Assembly: GCA_035573435.1 (NCBI GenBank)
Contig: DATMZR010000008.1
Span: 1-49,656 of the forward strand
Source: Solirubrobacterales bacterium
Lineage (GTDB): Bacteria > Actinomycetota > Thermoleophilia > Solirubrobacterales > 70-9
Direction of reading: 5' to 3'
DNA length: 49,656 bases
Positions 864-39,626 of the stretch are shown here, piece after piece. The notes beneath the pieces were generated by a model. The model was given only the letters and a program-made list of their open reading frames with translations. It had not been told where the DNA came from and did not search any database. Each line of letters begins with the position of its first letter. The first letter of the stretch is position 1. The position numbers were made by a program, and so were the translations under genes.

Positions 864-3800
864 TCACCGGGCGCGCCTGCCGAAGCTGTGAGCGGCGGGC
901 GCGACCGCGGCGAGCTCTGCAGTGTGGGCATCGTCTGCCGGGGACTGCGCGCGGGACGGGCGCCTGCCCGTCTCTCGCTCCGCCGACGGCTCGATCTGCC
1001 TCACATCCGCCTGCGGCGCGTCGGGAGTTGAGAGCGGACTCACGGCCGTGGCGACCACGTTGACGACCCCGGCTCGACGCTCGAGCTTTCCGCTCACCCG
1101 TGCGAACGACGCCGTCCTCACCGCCAGGCGATGGTGGGCATAGACGGCTGGCGGGACTACCACGTTGATGGTCCCCAGCTCGTCCTCGAGCAGCATGAAG
1201 ACAACCCCCCGCGCGGTCGCGGGACGCTGGCGGGCGACCACCATCCCGGCGATCTCCACTGCCCTGGCGTTCGAGATCCCGTAGAGGTCGGCGCTCGAGG
1301 AGACCCCCTGCTCGAGGGTCGGCCGCATGAGCGCCATCGGGTGCTCGGCGATCGCAATCCCAGTCGACGTGTAATCGGCAACCAGGCGCTCCCACGAGTC
1401 GAGCCGACGCAGCGAGGGCGCCGCTGGAATGGGGAGGGGGAGGGGGAGTTGAACCGGCGCCGATGCGGCCTCCCCGGTGGAGGCTGCGCCGTTTGCGCCC
1501 GTCACCAGCCGCCGCGCACCAGGCGCAACGCCAACCTGCCACAGGTCCTCGCGCCGACGCAGATCGTGGCCCCCGCCAATCGCCTTACAGGCCCCGGCCC
1601 ACGCGAGCAGCTCGTGCGCCTCGCGCCCGACGCCTGACCGCGAGGCCAGGTCGGCGAGGCTCGCGTAGGAGCCACCGGCCTCCCGCTCGGCGACCAGCGC
1701 GCGGGCATCGTCGTCCCGCAGGCCGGTTATGTAACCCATGCCGATGCGGACCGCCAGAAGGTCAGGGCGCTCTCCGGTACGCGGCGTCTCCACCTTGCAC
1801 TCCACCGCGCTCCGATTGACGTCCGGGGGCAGCACCTCGATCCCGCGACGCTGCGCCTCGTGCACCAGTGCGTCGGGCGGGTAGAAGCCCATCGGCTGCT
1901 CGTTCAGGAGCGAGCAGAGGAACTCGGAGGCGTAGTGGACCCGCAACCAGGTCGACTGGTAGGCGAGCAGGCCAAAGGCGACCGCGTGGGCCTTCGGGAA
2001 CCCGAAGCCCGAGAAACCGTGGATCTGCTCGAAGACGCGCTCCGCCACCTCGGCCGTCGCACCACGCTCCCTCGCCCCGGTGACGAACTGATCGCGATAG
2101 GCGAGGATCGCCTCCTCGGAGCGCTTGCGGCTCATCGCCCGGCGCAGCCCCTCGGCCTCGCCCGCGCTGAACCCGGCAAGCGCCATCGCCACCTGGATCA
2201 CCTGCTCCTGGAAGACGATCGTCCCCAGCGTGTCGCGAAGGATCGGCTCCAGCGAGGGATGGTCGTACGGAACCTCATACGACGGGTCCTTCCGGATCCG
2301 CTCCCGCCGCTCCAGATAGGGATGCACTGCGCCTCCCTGGATGGGCCCCGGGCGCACCAACGCCACCTGGACGGTGAGGTCGTCCAGGCACTCAGGCTGC
2401 GTGCGCGGCAGCATCTGCATCTGCGCCCGGCTCTCGATCTGAAAGACGCCGGTGGTATCCGCTGCCCGGATCGCCCGGTAGGTCTCGGGATCGTCCATGG
2501 GGATCCGGGAGAGGTCGATCTGCTCACTGCGCGCTCGGGCGATCTCCTCCACGCATCGCTCGACCGCCGACAGCATCCCCAGGCCCAGCAGGTCGATCTT
2601 CAAGAAGCCGGCATCTGCGCACGAGTCCTTGTCCCACTGGACGAGCTGACGCCCCTCCATCGCCGCCGGCTGGACGGGGCAGATGTCGACAAGTGGCCTG
2701 GTGGAGATCACCATCCCGCCGGGATGCTGAGAGGGGTGGCGCGGGAGCCCCCACGTGTCGCGAGCCAGCCGGGCGAGGGCGCGCCAGCGCACCGACGCCG
2801 CTCGCTCCGCGCCGATCGCTTCGGCCATGTCCGACTCCACCGAATCGGCGCGGTCGAACAGATCCACCGTCCGAGCCACTCGCTCGAGCTCTCCGGCCGG
2901 CAGCCCGAGCGCCTTGCCGAAGTCGCGAGTCGCCCCGCGCGATCGGTAGCAGGCGAACGCCGCGACCAGCGCCGAGCGCTCCTCGCCGTAGCGCTGATGG
3001 ACGCGGGGGATCAGCCTCTCGCGAATGTCGCGCGGGAAGTCGAGATCGATATCGGGCGCCTCGGTGATCTCCTCGTTCAGGAAGCGCCCCAGGAACAGCC
3101 CGTTGCGCACCGGGTCGACGTGCGAGAGCCCGGTCAAGTAGCAGACGATCGAGCTGACGCTGGAGCCGCGCCCGCGCCCGGGCGGCAACAGCGTCCGCGC
3201 GGAGTCCGGCCCCCGGACCTCGGCTGCCACCTCGCGGGCCAGTTCCAGGATGTCGAAGTGGAGCAGGAAGAACCCGGAGAGCTCCAGCCCGCGGATCACA
3301 TCGAGCTCATCCTCCAGCCGCCGCCGCGCCTCCCGCCGCTCCCGTCTGTCCTCGTACCTGTGATCAAGCCGGGCCCGGCAGATCTCCGCCAGCGCGCGAT
3401 CCGTCCCCGGATCCTCGGCGCCGGGATACCGATAGCCCAAGTCTCGCGTCAGATCGAACTCCAGCCGCTCTGCCAGCCGCTCCGTCTCCGCCACCGCCTC
3501 CGGATGCCCCTCGAACCTGGCCGCCATCTCCTCTCGAGAGGCCAGATACGAAGAGCCGTTCCCTCGCCGCCTCGACTCGGTCTCCTCGAGCGTCCCGCGC
3601 AACCCCACCGCGACCAGGGCGTCCTGAAGCGCCGCCCGGGAGGCATCGTGCATGTGGACGTTTCCCGTCGCCACACAGGGAACGCCGAGCCGCTCCGCAA
3701 GCACGGAGAGCCAGCGATTGCGCGCCAGGTCATGGCGCCAGAACGGCCGCTGCAGTTCCACCCGGAAGCGGTCGCACCCGAACGCCTCGCGCAATCTCCG

Positions 3801-4286
3801 TCCCAGCGCCTTGGCACCGCGCGCCTCGCTGGGGGACGGTCTCCCGCCGGTGCGCTCGAACGGCGCGGCGAGCGCCCCGTCGCGGGCGCATCCCGAGAGG
3901 CAGACGAGGCCCTCCGCATGAGCCTCGAGCGAGGTGAGCGGGAGAACGGGGGGGAGCGGCTCCCGGTCCGGCTTGGGGCGGGTATCCCTATGCGCCTCGG
4001 TGATCAGCCGGCAGAGGTTCCTCCAGCCCTCGCGGCTCTCCGCGAGAAGCGTCAAGTGGAACGGGCGGGCGCCCTTCTTCACTGTGAGCTCGGTACCCAC
4101 GATCGGGCGCACCCCGAACGACTTGCACGCTTGCGCGAACTCCATCGCCCCCCAGACCCCGTCGTGATCCGTGAGGGCGAGCGTCGGATAGCCGAGCACC
4201 GCCGCCTGCGCCGCGAGCTCCTCGGGCGACGACGCCCCGTCGAGGAACGAGAAGGCGGAATGGGCATGGAGTTCGACGTACGCCAT
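864..4286 (-). CDS. dnaE2: Error-prone DNA polymerase III alpha subunit DnaE2
   Basis: DnaE2 is the C-family polymerase that performs SOS-induced translesion synthesis with ImuB. The protein is 1140 residues from the ATG at 4286, which is typical. An N-terminal PHP domain begins ELHAHSAFSFLDGAS; the polymerase active-site motif PDIDLDFP is near residue 410; QLPLPLP at 946-952 resembles a beta-clamp-binding motif; an OB-fold follows (EIAGMVVARQR onwards). The tail after about residue 1085 is Arg/Ala-rich and probably disordered. I chose the ATG 2 nt after the preceding stop because it gives the family N terminus; an in-frame GTG at 4310 would add 8 residues. The gene is tightly coupled to the DUF6504-like gene and imuB, and should share the LexA-controlled promoter at 5801-5839. 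Confidence 0.95.
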   Translation of the reverse strand: MAYVELHAHSAFSFLDGASSPEELAAQAAVLGYPTLALTDHDGVWGAMEFAQACKSFGVRPIVGTELTVKKGARPFHLTLLAESREGWRNLCRLITEAHRDTRPKPDREPLPPVLPLTSLEAHAEGLVCLSGCARDGALAAPFERTGGRPSPSEARGAKALGRRLREAFGCDRFRVELQRPFWRHDLARNRWLSVLAERLGVPCVATGNVHMHDASRAALQDALVAVGLRGTLEETESRRRGNGSSYLASREEMAARFEGHPEAVAETERLAERLEFDLTRDLGYRYPGAEDPGTDRALAEICRARLDHRYEDRRERREARRRLEDELDVIRGLELSGFFLLHFDILELAREVAAEVRGPDSARTLLPPGRGRGSSVSSIVCYLTGLSHVDPVRNGLFLGRFLNEEITEAPDIDLDFPRDIRERLIPRVHQRYGEERSALVAAFACYRSRGATRDFGKALGLPAGELERVARTVDLFDRADSVESDMAEAIGAERAASVRWRALARLARDTWGLPRHPSQHPGGMVISTRPLVDICPVQPAAMEGRQLVQWDKDSCADAGFLKIDLLGLGMLSAVERCVEEIARARSEQIDLSRIPMDDPETYRAIRAADTTGVFQIESRAQMQMLPRTQPECLDDLTVQVALVRPGPIQGGAVHPYLERRERIRKDPSYEVPYDHPSLEPILRDTLGTIVFQEQVIQVAMALAGFSAGEAEGLRRAMSRKRSEEAILAYRDQFVTGARERGATAEVAERVFEQIHGFSGFGFPKAHAVAFGLLAYQSTWLRVHYASEFLCSLLNEQPMGFYPPDALVHEAQRRGIEVLPPDVNRSAVECKVETPRTGERPDLLAVRIGMGYITGLRDDDARALVAEREAGGSYASLADLASRSGVGREAHELLAWAGACKAIGGGHDLRRREDLWQVGVAPGARRLVTGANGAASTGEAASAPVQLPLPLPIPAAPSLRRLDSWERLVADYTSTGIAIAEHPMALMRPTLEQGVSSSADLYGISNARAVEIAGMVVARQRPATARGVVFMLLEDELGTINVVVPPAVYAHHRLAVRTASFARVSGKLERRAGVVNVVATAVSPLSTPDAPQADVRQIEPSAERETGRRPSRAQSPADDAHTAELAAVAPAAHSFGRRAR

Positions 4287-4288
4287 GT

Positions 4289-4537
4289 CTACGCGCGCTG
4301 CTCGAACCACCGCCCGCCGTCCGCCGGCTCACGGAAGACCACGATGTTGCGCCCATCGGCCAGGACCAGCTCGAAGTAGCGCCGGCGAAGCGGCTTCGGG
4401 GTCCACCAGCGATCCTCGACCAGCCACTCCTCGCGCATGACCTCCACTGCCACCCCCTCCACCTCGAGCGGTTTCCCATCCTCACCCGCTCGCACCTCGA
4501 CCGGTTGTGGCCAGTAGATGCTCCGCCGCTTAGTCAC
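4289..4537 (-). CDS. DUF6504-like small protein of the mutasome cassette
   Basis: An 82-residue protein between imuB and dnaE2. The GTG start overlaps the imuB stop (GTGA), and the stop is 2 nt before the dnaE2 ATG, so all three are probably co-translated. The sequence has many aromatic residues and a basic stretch: SIYWPQPVEV, then EEWLVEDRWW, then RRRYFELVLADGRNIVVFRE and a C-terminal GGRWFEQ. This matches what I recall of the small actinobacterial family DUF6504, which commonly lies in imuB-dnaE2 loci; the family name is from memory. Its role is unknown. By position it is a candidate accessory factor of the ImuB-DnaE2 polymerase. Signal peptide and membrane segments are absent. Confidence 0.8.
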   Translation of the reverse strand: MTKRRSIYWPQPVEVRAGEDGKPLEVEGVAVEVMREEWLVEDRWWTPKPLRRRYFELVLADGRNIVVFREPADGGRWFEQRA

Positions 4538-5802
4538 GAGGAGTCGTCGGCGGATGATGTGAATGGCGTCAGAAGTGATCGTCGTTCCGGCACGCGCGAC
4601 CCCGAGTCGGCCTCGAGCACCCGCAGCACCGCGTTCTTCCCGGCGATCGCGCGCGCCTGGCGAACCGCCTCGGCGAGCCGCCTCCACCTGTTCGGATCCG
4701 TTGATCCCTCCAGCGTCGTCTGGTCGCTTGCGGGTGGTCCCGTCTCGAGCGCCCGCAGGCTCAGCGAGGCGGCGGGGCCGGGAAGCTCCTCCAGCTTCGG
4801 CAGGAGTATTAGGCGCAGGCGCACCGGATCGACGCTGGCGCGGCGCAGGGCCGCCACCGATCGCCAGCTCCCGCCCCCGGCCAACCGCGCGCCGAGGCGC
4901 AGGCGCCGCAGGCTTCGTCCGCGCCTCTCCAGGCGAGTGAGGAGACGATCGATGAGCAGGGTCAGCGCCCGCTCCAGCTGGGGCCCCGAGACGGCTTCGG
5001 GCAGCTCGAGCCGCTCCACCAGATCCTCGTGCGCTCGACGGGGACGCAGAGGCTCGTCCGCGCCGCCAGCCATCCGCAGCGCCCTCAGCCCCGCCTCGCC
5101 GAAGCGGTCGGCGATCGCCGCCTCCGGAAGCGCCGCGAGCTGCCCGAGCGTATGAACGCCGAGGCGCTCGAGCTTCTCCGGCAAGTCTGCGGAACAAATG
5201 CGCGCCGCCTCCTCGGCTCCGCCTCCGGGGGCGGCGCGGTCGCTGAAGAGCCGATCGCGGAGCAGGCCCACCGGCAGGGGCGCCAGGAAGGCGCGCGTCA
5301 TCGTTCCGGGGACGATCACCGGCGCCTTGCGCGGCCTCGCCTGGAGGGCGGCGGCGTAGGCACAGAGCCGGGTCTGACCCGCCCCGAGCCGGGCGGGAGG
5401 ACCGACCGCCTTCCGTGCCTCCCGCAAGACACCCTCCAGGCTTCCTCCCCAAAGGCCCTGCAACCCTCCGGCCTCGAAGAAGGCCTCACCCGTCCGGCCC
5501 GGCTCGACCGCGGCGCCGATCCCCTCCAAGCGTCGCAGCACCTCCTCCCAGGCCGCCTCCGCACTCTCCGGATCCGGCGGCACCAGCGCCAGCTCCGGGC
5601 AGCGGGCGAGCGCCTCGCCCAGCCGCATCCCGGCGTGGACGCCGAACGCCTCGGCGGGCCCCGAGGTCTCGCCGACCACCTGAGGTCCACCGGGCTCAGG
5701 GGCGAGTGCGAGCGGTGTGGTGAGCAGAGCTCGCCGCTCCTCCAGGGCCGCCAGGAGAGCAAATCGGGGGATGAGCGCGCAAGCGGTGGCGGTTATGTTC
5801 AT
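4534..5802 (-). CDS. imuB: ImuB, Y-family polymerase-like mutasome protein
   Basis: ImuB is a catalytically dead Y-family polymerase that bridges DnaE2 and the sliding clamp during SOS mutagenesis. The protein is 422 residues. The N terminus ACALIPRFALLAAL occupies the place where active Y-family enzymes carry their first metal-binding Asp, and the later acidic motif is replaced by EAFFEAGGLQGLWGG, so the catalytic acids look absent, as in the family. A helix-hairpin-helix region (LERLGVHTLGQLAALPEAAIADRFGEAG) and a little-finger-like region (residues about 255-340) follow. The only usable start is the ATG at 5802, whose first bases overlap the LexA box. No imuA' gene is adjacent, unlike in mycobacteria, where imuA' precedes imuB. 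Confidence 0.9.
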   Translation of the reverse strand: MNITATACALIPRFALLAALEERRALLTTPLALAPEPGGPQVVGETSGPAEAFGVHAGMRLGEALARCPELALVPPDPESAEAAWEEVLRRLEGIGAAVEPGRTGEAFFEAGGLQGLWGGSLEGVLREARKAVGPPARLGAGQTRLCAYAAALQARPRKAPVIVPGTMTRAFLAPLPVGLLRDRLFSDRAAPGGGAEEAARICSADLPEKLERLGVHTLGQLAALPEAAIADRFGEAGLRALRMAGGADEPLRPRRAHEDLVERLELPEAVSGPQLERALTLLIDRLLTRLERRGRSLRRLRLGARLAGGGSWRSVAALRRASVDPVRLRLILLPKLEELPGPAASLSLRALETGPPASDQTTLEGSTDPNRWRRLAEAVRQARAIAGKNAVLRVLEADSGSRVPERRSLLTPFTSSADDSS

Positions 5803-35741: not shown

Positions 35742-37424
35742 GTGAGTCGTCTCTCCAGCTACTTCCTGCCCACGCTCCGGGAGGACCCGGCCGACGCCGA
35801 GGCGCTCTCGCACAGGCTGATGGTCCGGGCCGGTCTGATCCGCCAGCTCGGATCCGGCCTTTGGACATTCCTGCCGGCCGGCTATCGGGTGGTGAAGCGG
35901 GTCGAGCAGATCATCCGTGAGGAGATGGATGCGATCGGCGGCCAGGAGATGCTGATGCCCGTCCTCCAGCCTGCGGAGCTCTGGCGGCAGACGGGACGCT
36001 ACGAGATCGACGAGCTGTTCAAGCTCAAGGATCGCAAGCAGGCCGAGCTGGCGCTCGCGATGACCCACGAGGAGAACCTGACCTTCCACGTCGCCCGCGA
36101 CGTCCGCTCCTACCGCGAGCTGCCGCTGATCCTGTACCACGTGCAGACCAAGGAGCGCGACGAGCCGCGGCCGCGTGCGGGCGTGCTGCGCACACGCGAG
36201 TTCACGATGAAGGACTCGTACAGCTTCGATCGCGACGCCGAGGGGCTGGGCCGCAGTTATGAGCTCCACACCCTGGCTTACGACCGCATCTTCGACCGCT
36301 GCGGCCTGCGCTGGTACAGGGTCGAGGCCGACGTCGGCATGATGGGCGGGTGGGGGGCTCATGAGTATCTGGCGCCCTGCGAGGCGGGGGAGAATGAGGT
36401 GGCGCTCGCGCCCGGCTACTCGGCAAACGTCGAAGTGGCCACCGCGGAACCGCAGGCGGTCGAGCTCCCCCCGGCCCTGGACGAGCCCCGTGAGGTCCCC
36501 ACGCCCGGCCTGACCACGGTCGAGGAGGTCTCGAACGCGCTCGGCGTTCCCGCCGGCGCCGCGTTGAAGGCGCTTCCCGTGGTGACCCAGGACCGCGGCT
36601 TCCTGCTCACCCTGATCCGCGGCGATCACCGGCTCAACGAGATCAAGCTGCGGAACGCGCTCGGTTCCGACTTTCGCCCCGCTCACGCTGAGGAGATCGA
36701 GTCGACGCTGGGGCCCCCTGGGTTCATCGGGCCCGTGGGCGCCACGGTCCCGGTCCTCAAGGACGCGGCGATCCAGGGCGAGGGATATTTCGCCGGCGCC
36801 AACAAGCTGGACGCTCACCTGATCGGCGTCGTCCCCGGGCGGGACTTCCCCTTCGAGGAGCTAGACATCCGCTCCGTGGAGGCGGGGGACGCCGCACCAG
36901 GCGGGCACCCGATCGAGATCGAGTCCGCGATCGAGGTGGGCCAGATCTTCAAGCTCGGGACCCGCTACTCGGAGCCGTTGGGCGCCAACTACCTCGACGA
37001 GGAGGGGCGCGAGCATCCGATCGTCATGGGCAGCTACGGGATCGGCCCGGCGCGCACGATTGCGGCCGCGATCGAACAGGGCGCCGACGAGCGCGGCATC
37101 GTCTGGCCGCGCGCCATCGCGCCGTGGGACATCCATCTCGTGGGACTCGGCAAAGATGGGGACGAACCCACGGAGGTGGCCGATCGACTTCACGCACAGC
37201 TGCGGCAGACCGTCCGGGTGGTCTACGACGACCGCGACGCGGGGCCGGGGGAGAAGCTGACCGACGCCGAACTGCTGGGGTGCCCGCTGCGGATCACGGT
37301 CGGTCGCAAGGGGCTGGCCGCAGGGGTGGTAGAGGCGCAGGCGCGTCGCAGCGGCGCCGAGAGCCAGCTGCCGCTCGCCGAGGCGGCCGCGGGCGCGCTC
37401 GAGCTGCTTGATGGCCTCGACTGA
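35742..37424 (+). CDS. proS: Prolyl-tRNA synthetase, bacterial type
   Basis: ProRS charges tRNA-Pro. The protein is 560 residues of the bacterial type with the editing (INS) insertion between motifs 2 and 3. The N terminus SHRLMVRAGLIRQLGSGLWTFLPAG, the motif TREFTMKDSYSFD, the editing domain at about 225-395 (LTTVEEVSNALGVP, LIRGDHRLNEIKLRNAL), motif 3 GSYGIGPARTIAA, and the anticodon-binding domain (PWDIHLVGLGKDG onwards) are all present. It ends inside the start of pgsA with a 14-bp overlap. Confidence 0.95.
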   Translation: MSRLSSYFLPTLREDPADAEALSHRLMVRAGLIRQLGSGLWTFLPAGYRVVKRVEQIIREEMDAIGGQEMLMPVLQPAELWRQTGRYEIDELFKLKDRKQAELALAMTHEENLTFHVARDVRSYRELPLILYHVQTKERDEPRPRAGVLRTREFTMKDSYSFDRDAEGLGRSYELHTLAYDRIFDRCGLRWYRVEADVGMMGGWGAHEYLAPCEAGENEVALAPGYSANVEVATAEPQAVELPPALDEPREVPTPGLTTVEEVSNALGVPAGAALKALPVVTQDRGFLLTLIRGDHRLNEIKLRNALGSDFRPAHAEEIESTLGPPGFIGPVGATVPVLKDAAIQGEGYFAGANKLDAHLIGVVPGRDFPFEELDIRSVEAGDAAPGGHPIEIESAIEVGQIFKLGTRYSEPLGANYLDEEGREHPIVMGSYGIGPARTIAAAIEQGADERGIVWPRAIAPWDIHLVGLGKDGDEPTEVADRLHAQLRQTVRVVYDDRDAGPGEKLTDAELLGCPLRITVGRKGLAAGVVEAQARRSGAESQLPLAEAAAGALELLDGLD

Positions 37425-38034
37425 GGACGGCCGGTCCGGCAGGCGGCTCGTCGGCCTCGATCGCTCGGGGCCGAAGCCGAGGGCCACGCGCCGCGGCCAG
37501 CCGCTGCGGCCGCTGACGATTCCAAACCTGGTCGGCTATCTGAGGTTGGCTGGGATTCCGGTGTTCCTGTACCTGGCGCTCAGCTCCGACGACGGGCAGA
37601 CGGCGGCGACGGCGATTCTCTTCCTGGCCATCTCGGCGGCCGACTACCTGGACGGGTTCATCGCCCGGGCTACGGGCCAGTACAGCCGCATGGGGGCCCT
37701 GCTCGACCCGCTGGTCGACCGCCTGACGGTGCTGGCCGGGGTCGTGGTCACCTGGAAGTTCGAGCTGTTGCCTCGCTGGGCGCTCGCAGTGCTCGCGCTT
37801 CGCGAGATATTCACGCTCATCCTCGCCCAGCTTGCACTGCGCCGCGGCGTCGACCTGGAGATCAACTGGGTCGGACGGTGGTCGGTCTGGCTGACCATGG
37901 GCGGCATCTTCCTGGCGCTGGCAACCGACGCTTGGGTCGGCCCCGCGATGTTCCTCGTCGGCCTGGCCGGCTCACTGCTCGCTACGGCCCTGTACCTCAA
38001 GACGGGGCTGGCCAAGGCCCGTCCGCCCGGTTGA
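37411..38034 (+). CDS. pgsA: CDP-alcohol phosphatidyltransferase (PgsA family)
   Basis: An integral membrane enzyme transferring a phosphatidyl group from CDP-diacylglycerol to an alcohol acceptor, most likely glycerol 3-phosphate. The protein is 207 residues. The full signature is DYLDGFIARATGQYSRMGALLDPLVDR (positions of four Asp and the Gly/Ala/Arg conserved). About five hydrophobic segments follow a 35-residue basic N-terminal tail. The ATG overlaps proS by 14 bp. In mycobacteria a pgsA-type gene precedes the garA-merR region as well, so the neighbourhood is conserved. Confidence 0.9.
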   Translation: MASTEDGRSGRRLVGLDRSGPKPRATRRGQPLRPLTIPNLVGYLRLAGIPVFLYLALSSDDGQTAATAILFLAISAADYLDGFIARATGQYSRMGALLDPLVDRLTVLAGVVVTWKFELLPRWALAVLALREIFTLILAQLALRRGVDLEINWVGRWSVWLTMGGIFLALATDAWVGPAMFLVGLAGSLLATALYLKTGLAKARPPG

Positions 38035-38059
38035 TGCTTTGCAGCCCCTCAACCTCAAC

Positions 38060-38086
38060 TTGACCTTTCGCTGACGCGCCTATAAT
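38060..38086 (+). promoter_or_regulatory. Strong promoter before the RsiG-like gene (TTGACC ... TATAAT)
   Basis: A perfect TATAAT at 38081-38086 follows TTGACC at 38060-38065 with a short 15-bp spacer. Transcription would start near 38093 and give a leader of about 26 nt containing an AGAAGAGGGAG ribosome-binding site. It is the best sigma-70-type match in the window and differs from the leaderless promoters. Confidence 0.65.
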
Positions 38087-38118
38087 CGCCGTCGGTCCAC
38101 GAGAAGAGGGAGCGATCA

Positions 38119-38382
38119 TTGGAGGACACCTTTCCGGACGTCAGCTCGATGAGCGAAAGCGAGCTGAAGGACCTGATCAGCCAGCTCACGGACGAGGAGC
38201 GCGAGCTGTCCTACCGGCGCCGGCTTCTGCACGGCAAGATCGACATTCTGCGCGCCGAGCTCGTCAACCGCCTCAGGGCCCGGCGGGAGGCCGGCGAGGC
38301 GCTGATCACCGGCCGGGACGTGGACAAGCTCACGGACATCCTGATGGGCAAGGTTCCGGCTCCTCCCGAGGAGGAGACCTGA
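38119..38382 (+). CDS. RsiG-like small protein with single c-di-GMP-binding motif
   Basis: An 87-residue, mostly helical protein. Residues E27, S31, R34, H38 and D42 match the spacing of E(X)3S(X)2R(X)3Q(X)3D, the c-di-GMP signature of the anti-sigma factor RsiG, with His in place of Gln. Streptomyces RsiG carries the motif twice, in two antiparallel helices, and holds the sigma factor WhiG when c-di-GMP is bound; single-motif homologues that act as dimers are known from deep-branching actinobacteria. Helix 1 (about 13-57) is followed by a second helix (about 66-77, RDVDKLTDILMG) and an acidic Pro tail. The TTG start is fixed by a good ribosome-binding site 7 nt upstream; an ATG at residue 11 is possible. 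It heads an operon with FHA and MerR genes. No whiG-like gene is in the window. Confidence 0.7.
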   Translation: MEDTFPDVSSMSESELKDLISQLTDEERELSYRRRLLHGKIDILRAELVNRLRARREAGEALITGRDVDKLTDILMGKVPAPPEEET

Positions 38383-38385
38383 GCC

Positions 38386-38853
38386 GTGGCTCTGCACTGC
38401 TCGGAGTGCGGATTCGTCAACCCTGAGGGCGCCAACTACTGCCAGAAGTGCGGCGCGTACCTGGGTCGCCCGGAGGGCGAGGACGCCTCCACGATGGCCT
38501 ACAAGGTGGGGGAGACGGGCGAGTACGAGCCGGTCGATGTCACCGACGAGGTCGACAGGGCCGGCGCGGCTCTGGTCGTCCGGTCCGGCGGCGGCCGTGC
38601 CGGCGAAAGCTTCACAGTGGACCGCGACCGGATGAGCATCGGGCGCACTCCGGACGCCGCGGTATTCCTGGATGACGTGACCGTGTCGCGCAACCACGCG
38701 CTGATCGTCCGTCGCGACGACGGCCTGTACATCGACGACCTCGGCTCGCTGAACGGCACCTACGTGAATCGCCGGCGGATCGAATCCCACAAGCTCGACG
38801 ACGGCGACGAGATCCAGGTCGGGAAATACAAGCTCAGCTACCTGGAGCGCTGA
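38386..38853 (+). CDS. Zinc-ribbon/FHA-domain protein (GarA-like)
   Basis: A 155-residue protein with an N-terminal Cys4 zinc ribbon (C5, C8, C19, C22 in HCSECGFVNPEGANYCQKCG), a Thr-containing linker (about 30-60, with STMAYKVGETGEYEP), and a C-terminal FHA domain that binds phosphothreonine: SIGRTPDAAVFLDDVTVSRNHALI and DLGSLNGTYVN. Mycobacterial GarA, encoded next to a MerR gene as here, is phosphorylated in its N-terminal Thr motif by PknB or PknG and then regulates central nitrogen metabolism. Whether the Thr residues in this linker are phosphorylated is unknown. The GTG start is 3 nt after the RsiG-like stop and the stop is 2 nt before merR. Confidence 0.88.
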   Translation: MALHCSECGFVNPEGANYCQKCGAYLGRPEGEDASTMAYKVGETGEYEPVDVTDEVDRAGAALVVRSGGGRAGESFTVDRDRMSIGRTPDAAVFLDDVTVSRNHALIVRRDDGLYIDDLGSLNGTYVNRRRIESHKLDDGDEIQVGKYKLSYLER

Positions 38854-38855
38854 GG

Positions 38856-39626
38856 GTGGCCGTCACAACCAGAAGCGACGAGGGCAAGGCGGCACCGGGC
38901 CGGGCAAGAGCGTCCGGCTCGGACAGCGGGTCGGCATCCCGGCCGCGGAAGGCGCTGACCATCGGCGCCGTGTCCAAGATCTTGAGCCAGGAGTTCGACG
39001 ACATCTCGATCTCCAAGATTCGCTACCTCGAGGACCAGAAGCTCCTCTCGCCCCGTCGGACGCAGGGTGGCTACCGGCTCTACAGCCAGACCGACGTCGA
39101 GCGCCTGCGGGCGATCCTGCGCATGCAGCGCGACGAGTTCCTGCCCCTGCGGGTGATCCGCCAGGAGCTGGCCACCGGCGACTTCACCGGCTCGCGCCGC
39201 GGCAGCGAGGCCGCGGCGACCCGCAGGGCGGGGTCCGTGGAGGCCCCGGTCTCGGTGCTCACGCTGGACGAGTTGCTCGATCAAGCCGGTGTGTCGGAGG
39301 GGCTCCTGCGCGAGCTTCAGGAGTTCGGCATCGTGCAGCCCGCGCGCCAGGACGGCAGGACGGTGTACGACGAAACAGACCTGGAGATCGTCCGGGCTGC
39401 CGCGGAGCTCTCGCGATTCGGCGTCGCCGGCCGCAACCTGCGCGTCTTCGTCAGCTCGGCGGACCGCGAGGCGGCGCTGCTCCAACAGCTCGTCGGTGCG
39501 GCGCTGCGGTCACGCAGCCAGGCTCGACGCAAGGAGGCGATCGAGAACCTGGAGAGCCTGGCGGCGGTTTGCGGGCATCTGAAGCACCTGCTCCTCGTCC
39601 GCGACCTCCGCCGCCTCAAGGGGTAG
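38856..39626 (+). CDS. MerR family transcriptional regulator
   Basis: A 256-residue regulator. After a low-complexity N-terminal tail of about 33 residues, the winged-HTH MerR domain reads LTIGAVSKILSQEFDDISISKIRYLEDQKLLSPRRTQGGYRLYSQTDVERL. A second, MerR-like HTH region occurs at about 140-200 (LTLDELLDQAGVSEGLLRELQEFGIV and YDETDLEIVRAAAELSRFGV). There is no effector-binding Cys cluster. The arrangement matches the MerR gene that follows garA in mycobacteria (Rv1828 type). It may regulate its own operon. The GTG start is 2 nt after the FHA stop. Confidence 0.88.
   Translation: MAVTTRSDEGKAAPGRARASGSDSGSASRPRKALTIGAVSKILSQEFDDISISKIRYLEDQKLLSPRRTQGGYRLYSQTDVERLRAILRMQRDEFLPLRVIRQELATGDFTGSRRGSEAAATRRAGSVEAPVSVLTLDELLDQAGVSEGLLRELQEFGIVQPARQDGRTVYDETDLEIVRAAAELSRFGVAGRNLRVFVSSADREAALLQQLVGAALRSRSQARRKEAIENLESLAAVCGHLKHLLLVRDLRRLKG

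What the first reader, a model, noticed from the sequence alone, without database searches (positions are those of the whole stretch)
38119..38382. RsiG-like protein with one exactly spaced c-di-GMP motif and a Gln-to-His change
Seen: residues E27, S31, R34, H38, D42 of an 87-residue helical protein keep the spacing E(X)3S(X)2R(X)3Q(X)3D. Known: in Streptomyces RsiG two copies of this motif bind c-di-GMP and hold the sigma factor WhiG inactive; single-motif versions that dimerise occur in early-branching actinobacteria. Inference: this is a one-motif c-di-GMP-responsive anti-sigma factor, but His at the Gln position could change dinucleotide selectivity or abolish binding. Its cognate sigma factor is not in the window.
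Basis: partly seen in the sequence, partly recalled or inferred. Interest (0 to 1): 0.8.

Follow-up and report, generated by a model that had tools for sequence, protein, structure and literature searches.

The report
Ordinary single-motif RsiG anti-sigma factor
This small gene encodes a typical one-motif RsiG, a protein that (as shown in close relatives) uses the signal molecule c-di-GMP to lock away the sigma factor WhiG; its histidine is the normal residue in this bacterial order and its partner sigma factor is present elsewhere in the same genome.

Summary
The 87-residue product of 38119-38382 (+) is an RsiG: Pfam RsiG 69.9 bits against a cut-off of 27, best solved relative Rubrobacter RsiG. 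E27, S31, R34, H38 and D42 sit exactly on the c-di-GMP motif. His in place of Gln is not unusual: it is fixed in 79 of the 80 nearest relatives by script, and in the 80th by eye. Published work on Conexibacter woesei RsiG, also one motif with His, shows binding of c-di-GMP, ~15-fold tighter with WhiG, and no c-di-AMP binding (PMC8325347). The "missing" sigma factor exists: one WhiG on contig C43 (269 bits), with the three sigma2 residues that touch c-di-GMP, unique among eight sigma-70 paralogues. RsiG and WhiG co-occur (187 both, 43 neither, 19 only one, of 249 genomes). The genome has 11 GGDEF and 2 EAL domains and type IV pili. A WhiG-type -10 sequence lies just before pilB and recurs before its closest orthologues. 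Verdict: a new, ordinary member of a known kind. More novel are variants in relatives: apparently independent twin-motif RsiGs and RsiG domains fused to Clp_N.

The parts
38119..38382 (+). rsiG: 87-aa single-motif RsiG anti-sigma factor (TTG start)
   Evidence: Pfam RsiG 69.9 bits, cut-off 27; PDB 7lq2 E 4.5e-10; alignment A1
38197..38244 (+). codons of the c-di-GMP motif, E27-S31-R34-H38-D42
   Evidence: read from the translation; E27, S31, R34, D42 invariant and H38 over 90% in 32 aligned sequences
38137..38139 (+). codon of D7, equivalent of Rubrobacter RsiG D39 that contacts WhiG R43 and N47
   Evidence: alignment to 7lq4_D, offset 32; contacts from PMC8325347; invariant in 32 aligned sequences
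38060..38086 (+). possible sigma-A promoter of rsiG, TTGACC-N15-TATAAT (short spacer)
   Evidence: read by eye in the sequence; not called by the scanner, which needs a 16-18 spacer
38386..38853 (+). FHA protein with N-terminal zinc ribbon, next gene, 3 bases after rsiG
   Evidence: Pfam FHA 1.1e-20, Zn_Ribbon_1; OdhI/GarA model 114 bits, below its cut-off of 200; next to rsiG in 80 of 80 relatives
38856..39626 (+). ftsR-like MerR regulator, following gene
   Evidence: NCBIfam FtsR 218 bits, cut-off 150; in 80 of 80 relatives
37408..38034 (+). CDP-alcohol phosphatidyltransferase (pgsA-like), upstream gene
   Evidence: Pfam 3.2e-28; conserved upstream neighbour

Best explanation
It is the RsiG of this Solirubrobacterales bacterium. 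Inferred from the solved Rubrobacter complex: two copies pair as an antiparallel coiled coil, and each copy's E-S-R-H-D face holds half of an intercalated c-di-GMP dimer. At high c-di-GMP this armed dimer clamps the sigma2 and sigma4 domains of the single WhiG (contig C43); at low c-di-GMP WhiG is released and transcribes flagellar-type promoters, most likely including the type IV pilus gene pilB. His38 stacks on a guanine as Gln does. Shown here: the homology, the motif, the presence and contact residues of WhiG, the co-occurrence, the domains for c-di-GMP turnover, the pili and the promoter-like site before pilB. Not shown: dimerisation, nucleotide binding, WhiG binding and regulation in this organism.
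For: RsiG profile and PDB matches. Invariant motif and D7 in 32 aligned sequences. One WhiG at 269 bits, best PDB hit S. venezuelae WhiG at 1.1e-86; its K40, G44 and R45 (Sv K57, G61, R62) occur together in no other of the eight sigma-70 paralogues. Co-occurrence in 249 genomes: 187 both, 43 neither, 12 RsiG only, 7 WhiG only, odds ratio 96. 11 GGDEF and 2 EAL domains. Type IV pilus cluster on C7 and pilB on C6. TTGA-N16-GCCGATAA ends 7 bases before a GTG start of pilB; TTNA-N15/16-GCCGATA lies upstream of 6 of the 10 closest pilB orthologues and on the reverse strand of none. All 9 order genomes without both RsiG and WhiG also lack this pilB. C. woesei RsiG with His binds c-di-GMP.
Against: No biochemistry on this protein. 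The strict Rubrobacter promoter consensus is not enriched in the genome (22 hits against 18 for the reversed control). The -35 form TTNA was read off the same orthologues in which it was then counted. The site of the WhiG residue N47 is Ala here, and RsiG K60 is Glu28. The fold search of the single-chain model found nothing, as expected for a lone helix. The published function in Rubrobacter rests on promoter mapping, not on mutants.
Confidence: 0.87

Rival explanations
1. An RsiG that has lost or changed nucleotide binding because of the Gln-to-His change (selective for another dinucleotide, or constitutive).
For: The position contacts a guanine base; C. woesei RsiG with His binds about twofold more weakly than Rubrobacter RsiG with Gln (25 against 12 uM).
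Against: His is fixed in this order and frequent in motif 1 of twin-motif RsiGs; C. woesei RsiG with His binds c-di-GMP and not c-di-AMP; specificity for guanine comes from Arg and Asp, both kept.
Confidence: 0.05
2. RsiG here has a second or different partner, such as the FHA protein or FtsR-like regulator encoded directly downstream.
For: Gene order pgsA-rsiG-FHA-ftsR is kept in the 80 nearest relatives, with rsiG and FHA usually within tens of bases.
Against: The same order may only reflect an old operon; RsiG/WhiG co-occurrence and the WhiG contact residues already explain the conservation. No direct evidence for another partner.
Confidence: 0.06
3. A chance motif in an unrelated coiled coil.
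For: Helical, charged proteins can carry spaced motifs by chance; the weak V-ATPase and UvrB matches are of that kind.
Against: Pfam E 1.5e-19, PDB RsiG matches, 32 aligned sequences with invariant motif.
Confidence: 0.01

Closest known systems
Conexibacter woesei RsiG (Schumacher et al. 2021, PMC8325347)
   Same: One motif, His at the Gln position, WhiG partner; other Conexibacter loci (L089, L094, L123, L129) are among the nearest relatives found here
   Different: C. woesei RsiG has measured c-di-GMP and WhiG binding; this one has not been tested
Rubrobacter radiotolerans RsiG, PDB 7lq2-7lq4
   Same: One motif, same length class, D39/D7 and R77/R45 WhiG contacts kept
   Different: Gln instead of His; K60 is Glu28 here; [quoted passage not shown]
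Streptomyces venezuelae RsiG, PDB 6pfj
   Same: Same motif and profile family; partner WhiG
   Different: Two motifs in one chain, monomer, controls sporulation

Membership tests
RsiG (Pfam PF22802) | Profile match above the curated cut-off | tested here: met
   69.9 bits against 27
RsiG (Pfam PF22802) | E(X)3S(X)2R(X)3[Q/H](X)3D motif | tested here: met
   E27 S31 R34 H38 D42
Single-motif RsiG | Only one motif, short protein, second helix alpha5 absent | tested here: met
   87 aa, one motif, one long helix and one short
Single-motif RsiG | Glycines linking the coiled-coil helix to N- and C-terminal arms | tested here: inconclusive
   G59 and G65 on the C side; the N-side Gly seen in most relatives is Ser9 here
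RsiG-WhiG switch | A WhiG sigma factor with the c-di-GMP contacts K, G, R in sigma2 | tested here: met
   L002 WhiG K40, G44, R45, unique among eight paralogues
RsiG-WhiG switch | c-di-GMP synthesis in the cell | tested here: met
   11 GGDEF and 2 EAL domains by profile; catalytic residues not checked
RsiG-WhiG switch | Binds c-di-GMP specifically | not testable with these tools
   needs a binding assay
Single-motif RsiG | Antiparallel homodimer | not testable with these tools
   no multimer prediction on hand
RsiG-WhiG switch | WhiG-dependent promoters before type IV pilus genes, as in Rubrobacter | tested here: inconclusive
   perfect -10 before pilB and GCCGATA upstream in 7 of the 10 closest orthologues, variant -35; strict consensus not enriched genome-wide

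The most novel reading that the evidence does not exclude
Probability: 0.12. Interest if true: 0.5.

Novelty: new member of a known kind. Interest (0 to 1): 0.2.

Why it matters
It adds an order-wide and class-wide test of a published model: RsiG and WhiG are gained or lost together, His is a settled variant, and pilB carries a conserved WhiG-like -10 in a group where the regulon has not been mapped, to judge by the papers searched. For the window itself the result is that the gene is ordinary and its partner is known.

Tried and rejected
NCBIfam has no model that matches this RsiG. The strict promoter TAAA-N15-GCCGATAA with up to 2 mismatches gave 22 hits against 18 control hits, and with up to 3 mismatches 6 in the window against 5.8 expected: no signal. 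A one-mismatch hit on C7 near a Flp-type pilin points the wrong way and was dropped. Of the four TTSA-N15/16-GCCGATA hits one is inside the second pilB, one is before an FtsH-like gene and one is in a region without a clear gene. Foldseek of the monomer model gave nothing below E 1. The idea that His marks a new selectivity was rejected on published binding data and on its fixation in the order. The relatives search used a pattern that contains the His (RLLHGKID), so the His count is biased to some degree; five other patterns had no such bias.

Full report
What is there. The ORF at 38119-38382 (+) encodes 87 residues, LEDTFPDVSSMSESELKDLISQLTDEERELSYRRRLLHGKIDILRAELVNRLRARREAGEALITGRDVDKLTDILMGKVPAPPEEET (the first codon TTG is read as Met). 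E27, S31, R34, H38 and D42 have the exact spacing of the RsiG c-di-GMP motif. The match is not chance: Pfam RsiG scores 69.9 bits against a cut-off of 27, and the only solved proteins with convincing similarity are the RsiGs of Rubrobacter (7lq2, 7lq3, 7lq4; E about 5e-10) and Streptomyces venezuelae (6pfj; 1e-8). With 31 relatives the motif residues E27, S31, R34 and D42 are invariant and H38 is over 90%. The predicted fold is a 45-residue helix followed by a short helix.

What is already known. Schumacher et al. 2021 (PMC8325347) found single-motif RsiGs in Rubrobacter and in three Thermoleophilia (Thermoleophilum, Patulibacter, Conexibacter), solved the Rubrobacter (RsiG)2-(c-di-GMP)2-WhiG complex, and noted that His is frequent at the Gln position of motif 1 and can make the same stacking contact. 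They measured C. woesei RsiG, which has His: Kd 25 uM for c-di-GMP, 1.7 uM with WhiG, and no binding of c-di-AMP. In the 80 nearest relatives found here, from Solirubrobacter, Conexibacter, Patulibacter, Svornostia and many MAGs, His stands in 79 by script; the 80th (L116) was misread by the pattern and also has His (ETDISYRRRILHGKID). One of the six search patterns held the His, so this count leans towards His.

The sigma factor. The window is the whole of contig C8 of a 2.58-Mb genome in 43 contigs. The genome holds one RsiG and one FliA/WhiG sigma over the curated cut-off, 269 bits, on contig C43. Its best solved relative is S. venezuelae WhiG (1.1e-86). The three sigma2 residues that touch c-di-GMP in both solved complexes (K57, G61, R62 in S. 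venezuelae; K53, G57, R58 in Rubrobacter) are K40, G44 and R45 here; no other of the eight sigma-70 proteins compared has this set. In sigma4, T228 and R230 match Rubrobacter T237 and R239 while K243 is Glu234; this sigma4 numbering is my own reading of the spacing given in the paper. On the RsiG side D7 and R45 match the contact residues D39 and R77; K60 is Glu28.

Co-occurrence. In the same 249 genomes of the class, 187 have both RsiG and WhiG, 43 neither, 12 RsiG only and 7 WhiG only. Relatedness inflates the Fisher probability, but the two genes clearly come and go together. Incomplete genomes may account for some of the 19 exceptions.

Input and output. The genome has 11 GGDEF and 2 EAL domains, a type IV pilus cluster on C7 (prepilin peptidase, pilins, pilC, pilT, pilB, named from their translations and from the PF00437 matches) and a second pilB on C6 with an MshEN domain. 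Directly before a likely GTG start of the C6 pilB stands TTGATTCCCGGCGACGCTACGCCGATAA, a perfect flagellar/WhiG -10 with a weak -35. Among the ten closest orthologues in the order (this one included), GCCGATA lies upstream in 7 and TTNA-N15/16-GCCGATA in 6; the reverse strand of the same regions has none. In the whole genome TTSA-N15/16-GCCGATA occurs 4 times, the reversed control never. The -35 form was derived from these sequences, so only the -10 is an independent test. All nine order genomes that lack both RsiG and WhiG also lack this pilB; 35 of the 40 others have it. This agrees with the Rubrobacter regulon but the strict Rubrobacter consensus is not enriched genome-wide.

Neighbourhood. 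pgsA, rsiG, a zinc-ribbon FHA protein and an FtsR-like MerR regulator follow each other closely, with 3 and 2 bases between the last three. The FHA and FtsR neighbours are found in all 80 relatives, and the pgsA neighbour in all but one whose contig ends first. A functional tie is possible but untested.

Beyond the finding. Among relatives are variants that the 2021 survey did not report. In family f4 (G124, G127, G172) two whole RsiGs are fused head to tail in one frame, His in both motifs; in G124 the halves are 56% identical to each other and about 64% identical to the single-motif protein of the window, which suggests an independent and more recent duplication than that of Streptomyces. 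In G003, G135 and G153 another twin form occurs. In G071 and G175 the RsiG domain is fused behind a double Clp_N domain (Pfam Clp_N 8e-33 and RsiG 1e-14 in one 236-aa frame); among the best matches in a search of 249 genomes only these two genomes stood out with it. These are more novel than the gene in the window.

Verdict. Observation confirmed; interpretation right in kind; the novelty claim fails. New member of a known kind, interest low.

Noticed in passing
L171:967-1674 (G071:C7), L175 (G071:C43), L181:970-1671 (G175:C63), L176 (G175:C124): RsiG-motif domain fused to the C-terminus of a double Clp_N (ClpC N-domain) protein, several paralogues per genome; could put a Clp-type partner under c-di-GMP control.
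   Followed up: partly
L162 (G124:C16), L159 (G172:C7), L163 (G127:C23): Twin-motif RsiG in one ORF within the same order, halves 56% identical to each other in G124, His in both motifs: looks like an independent fusion of single-motif RsiG in Thermoleophilia, where only single-motif forms were reported.
   Followed up: partly
L164 (G003:C2), L165 (G153:C238), L166 (G135:C53): A second, more divergent twin-motif RsiG type of 174-193 aa in another family of the class.
   Followed up: no
L178 (G003:C7), L177 (G153:C130), L179 (G135:C39): Mini twin-motif coiled coil (two E..S..R..H..D motifs 37-38 residues apart); in G003 in frame behind what looks like an acyl-CoA synthetase.
   Followed up: no
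G000:C6:266761-268530 (L132:1486-3258, - strand): pilB with an MshEN domain (a domain known to bind c-di-GMP in MshE) and a WhiG-like -10 directly before its start, present before several close orthologues.
   Followed up: yes
window 37408-39626: Conserved gene order pgsA, rsiG, zinc-ribbon FHA protein, ftsR-like regulator in the 80 nearest relatives.
   Followed up: partly
window 864-5802, - strand: DnaE-type polymerase (1148 aa) next to a Y-family-like protein (422 aa): looks like a dnaE2/imuB mutagenesis cassette, from the translations only.
   Followed up: no
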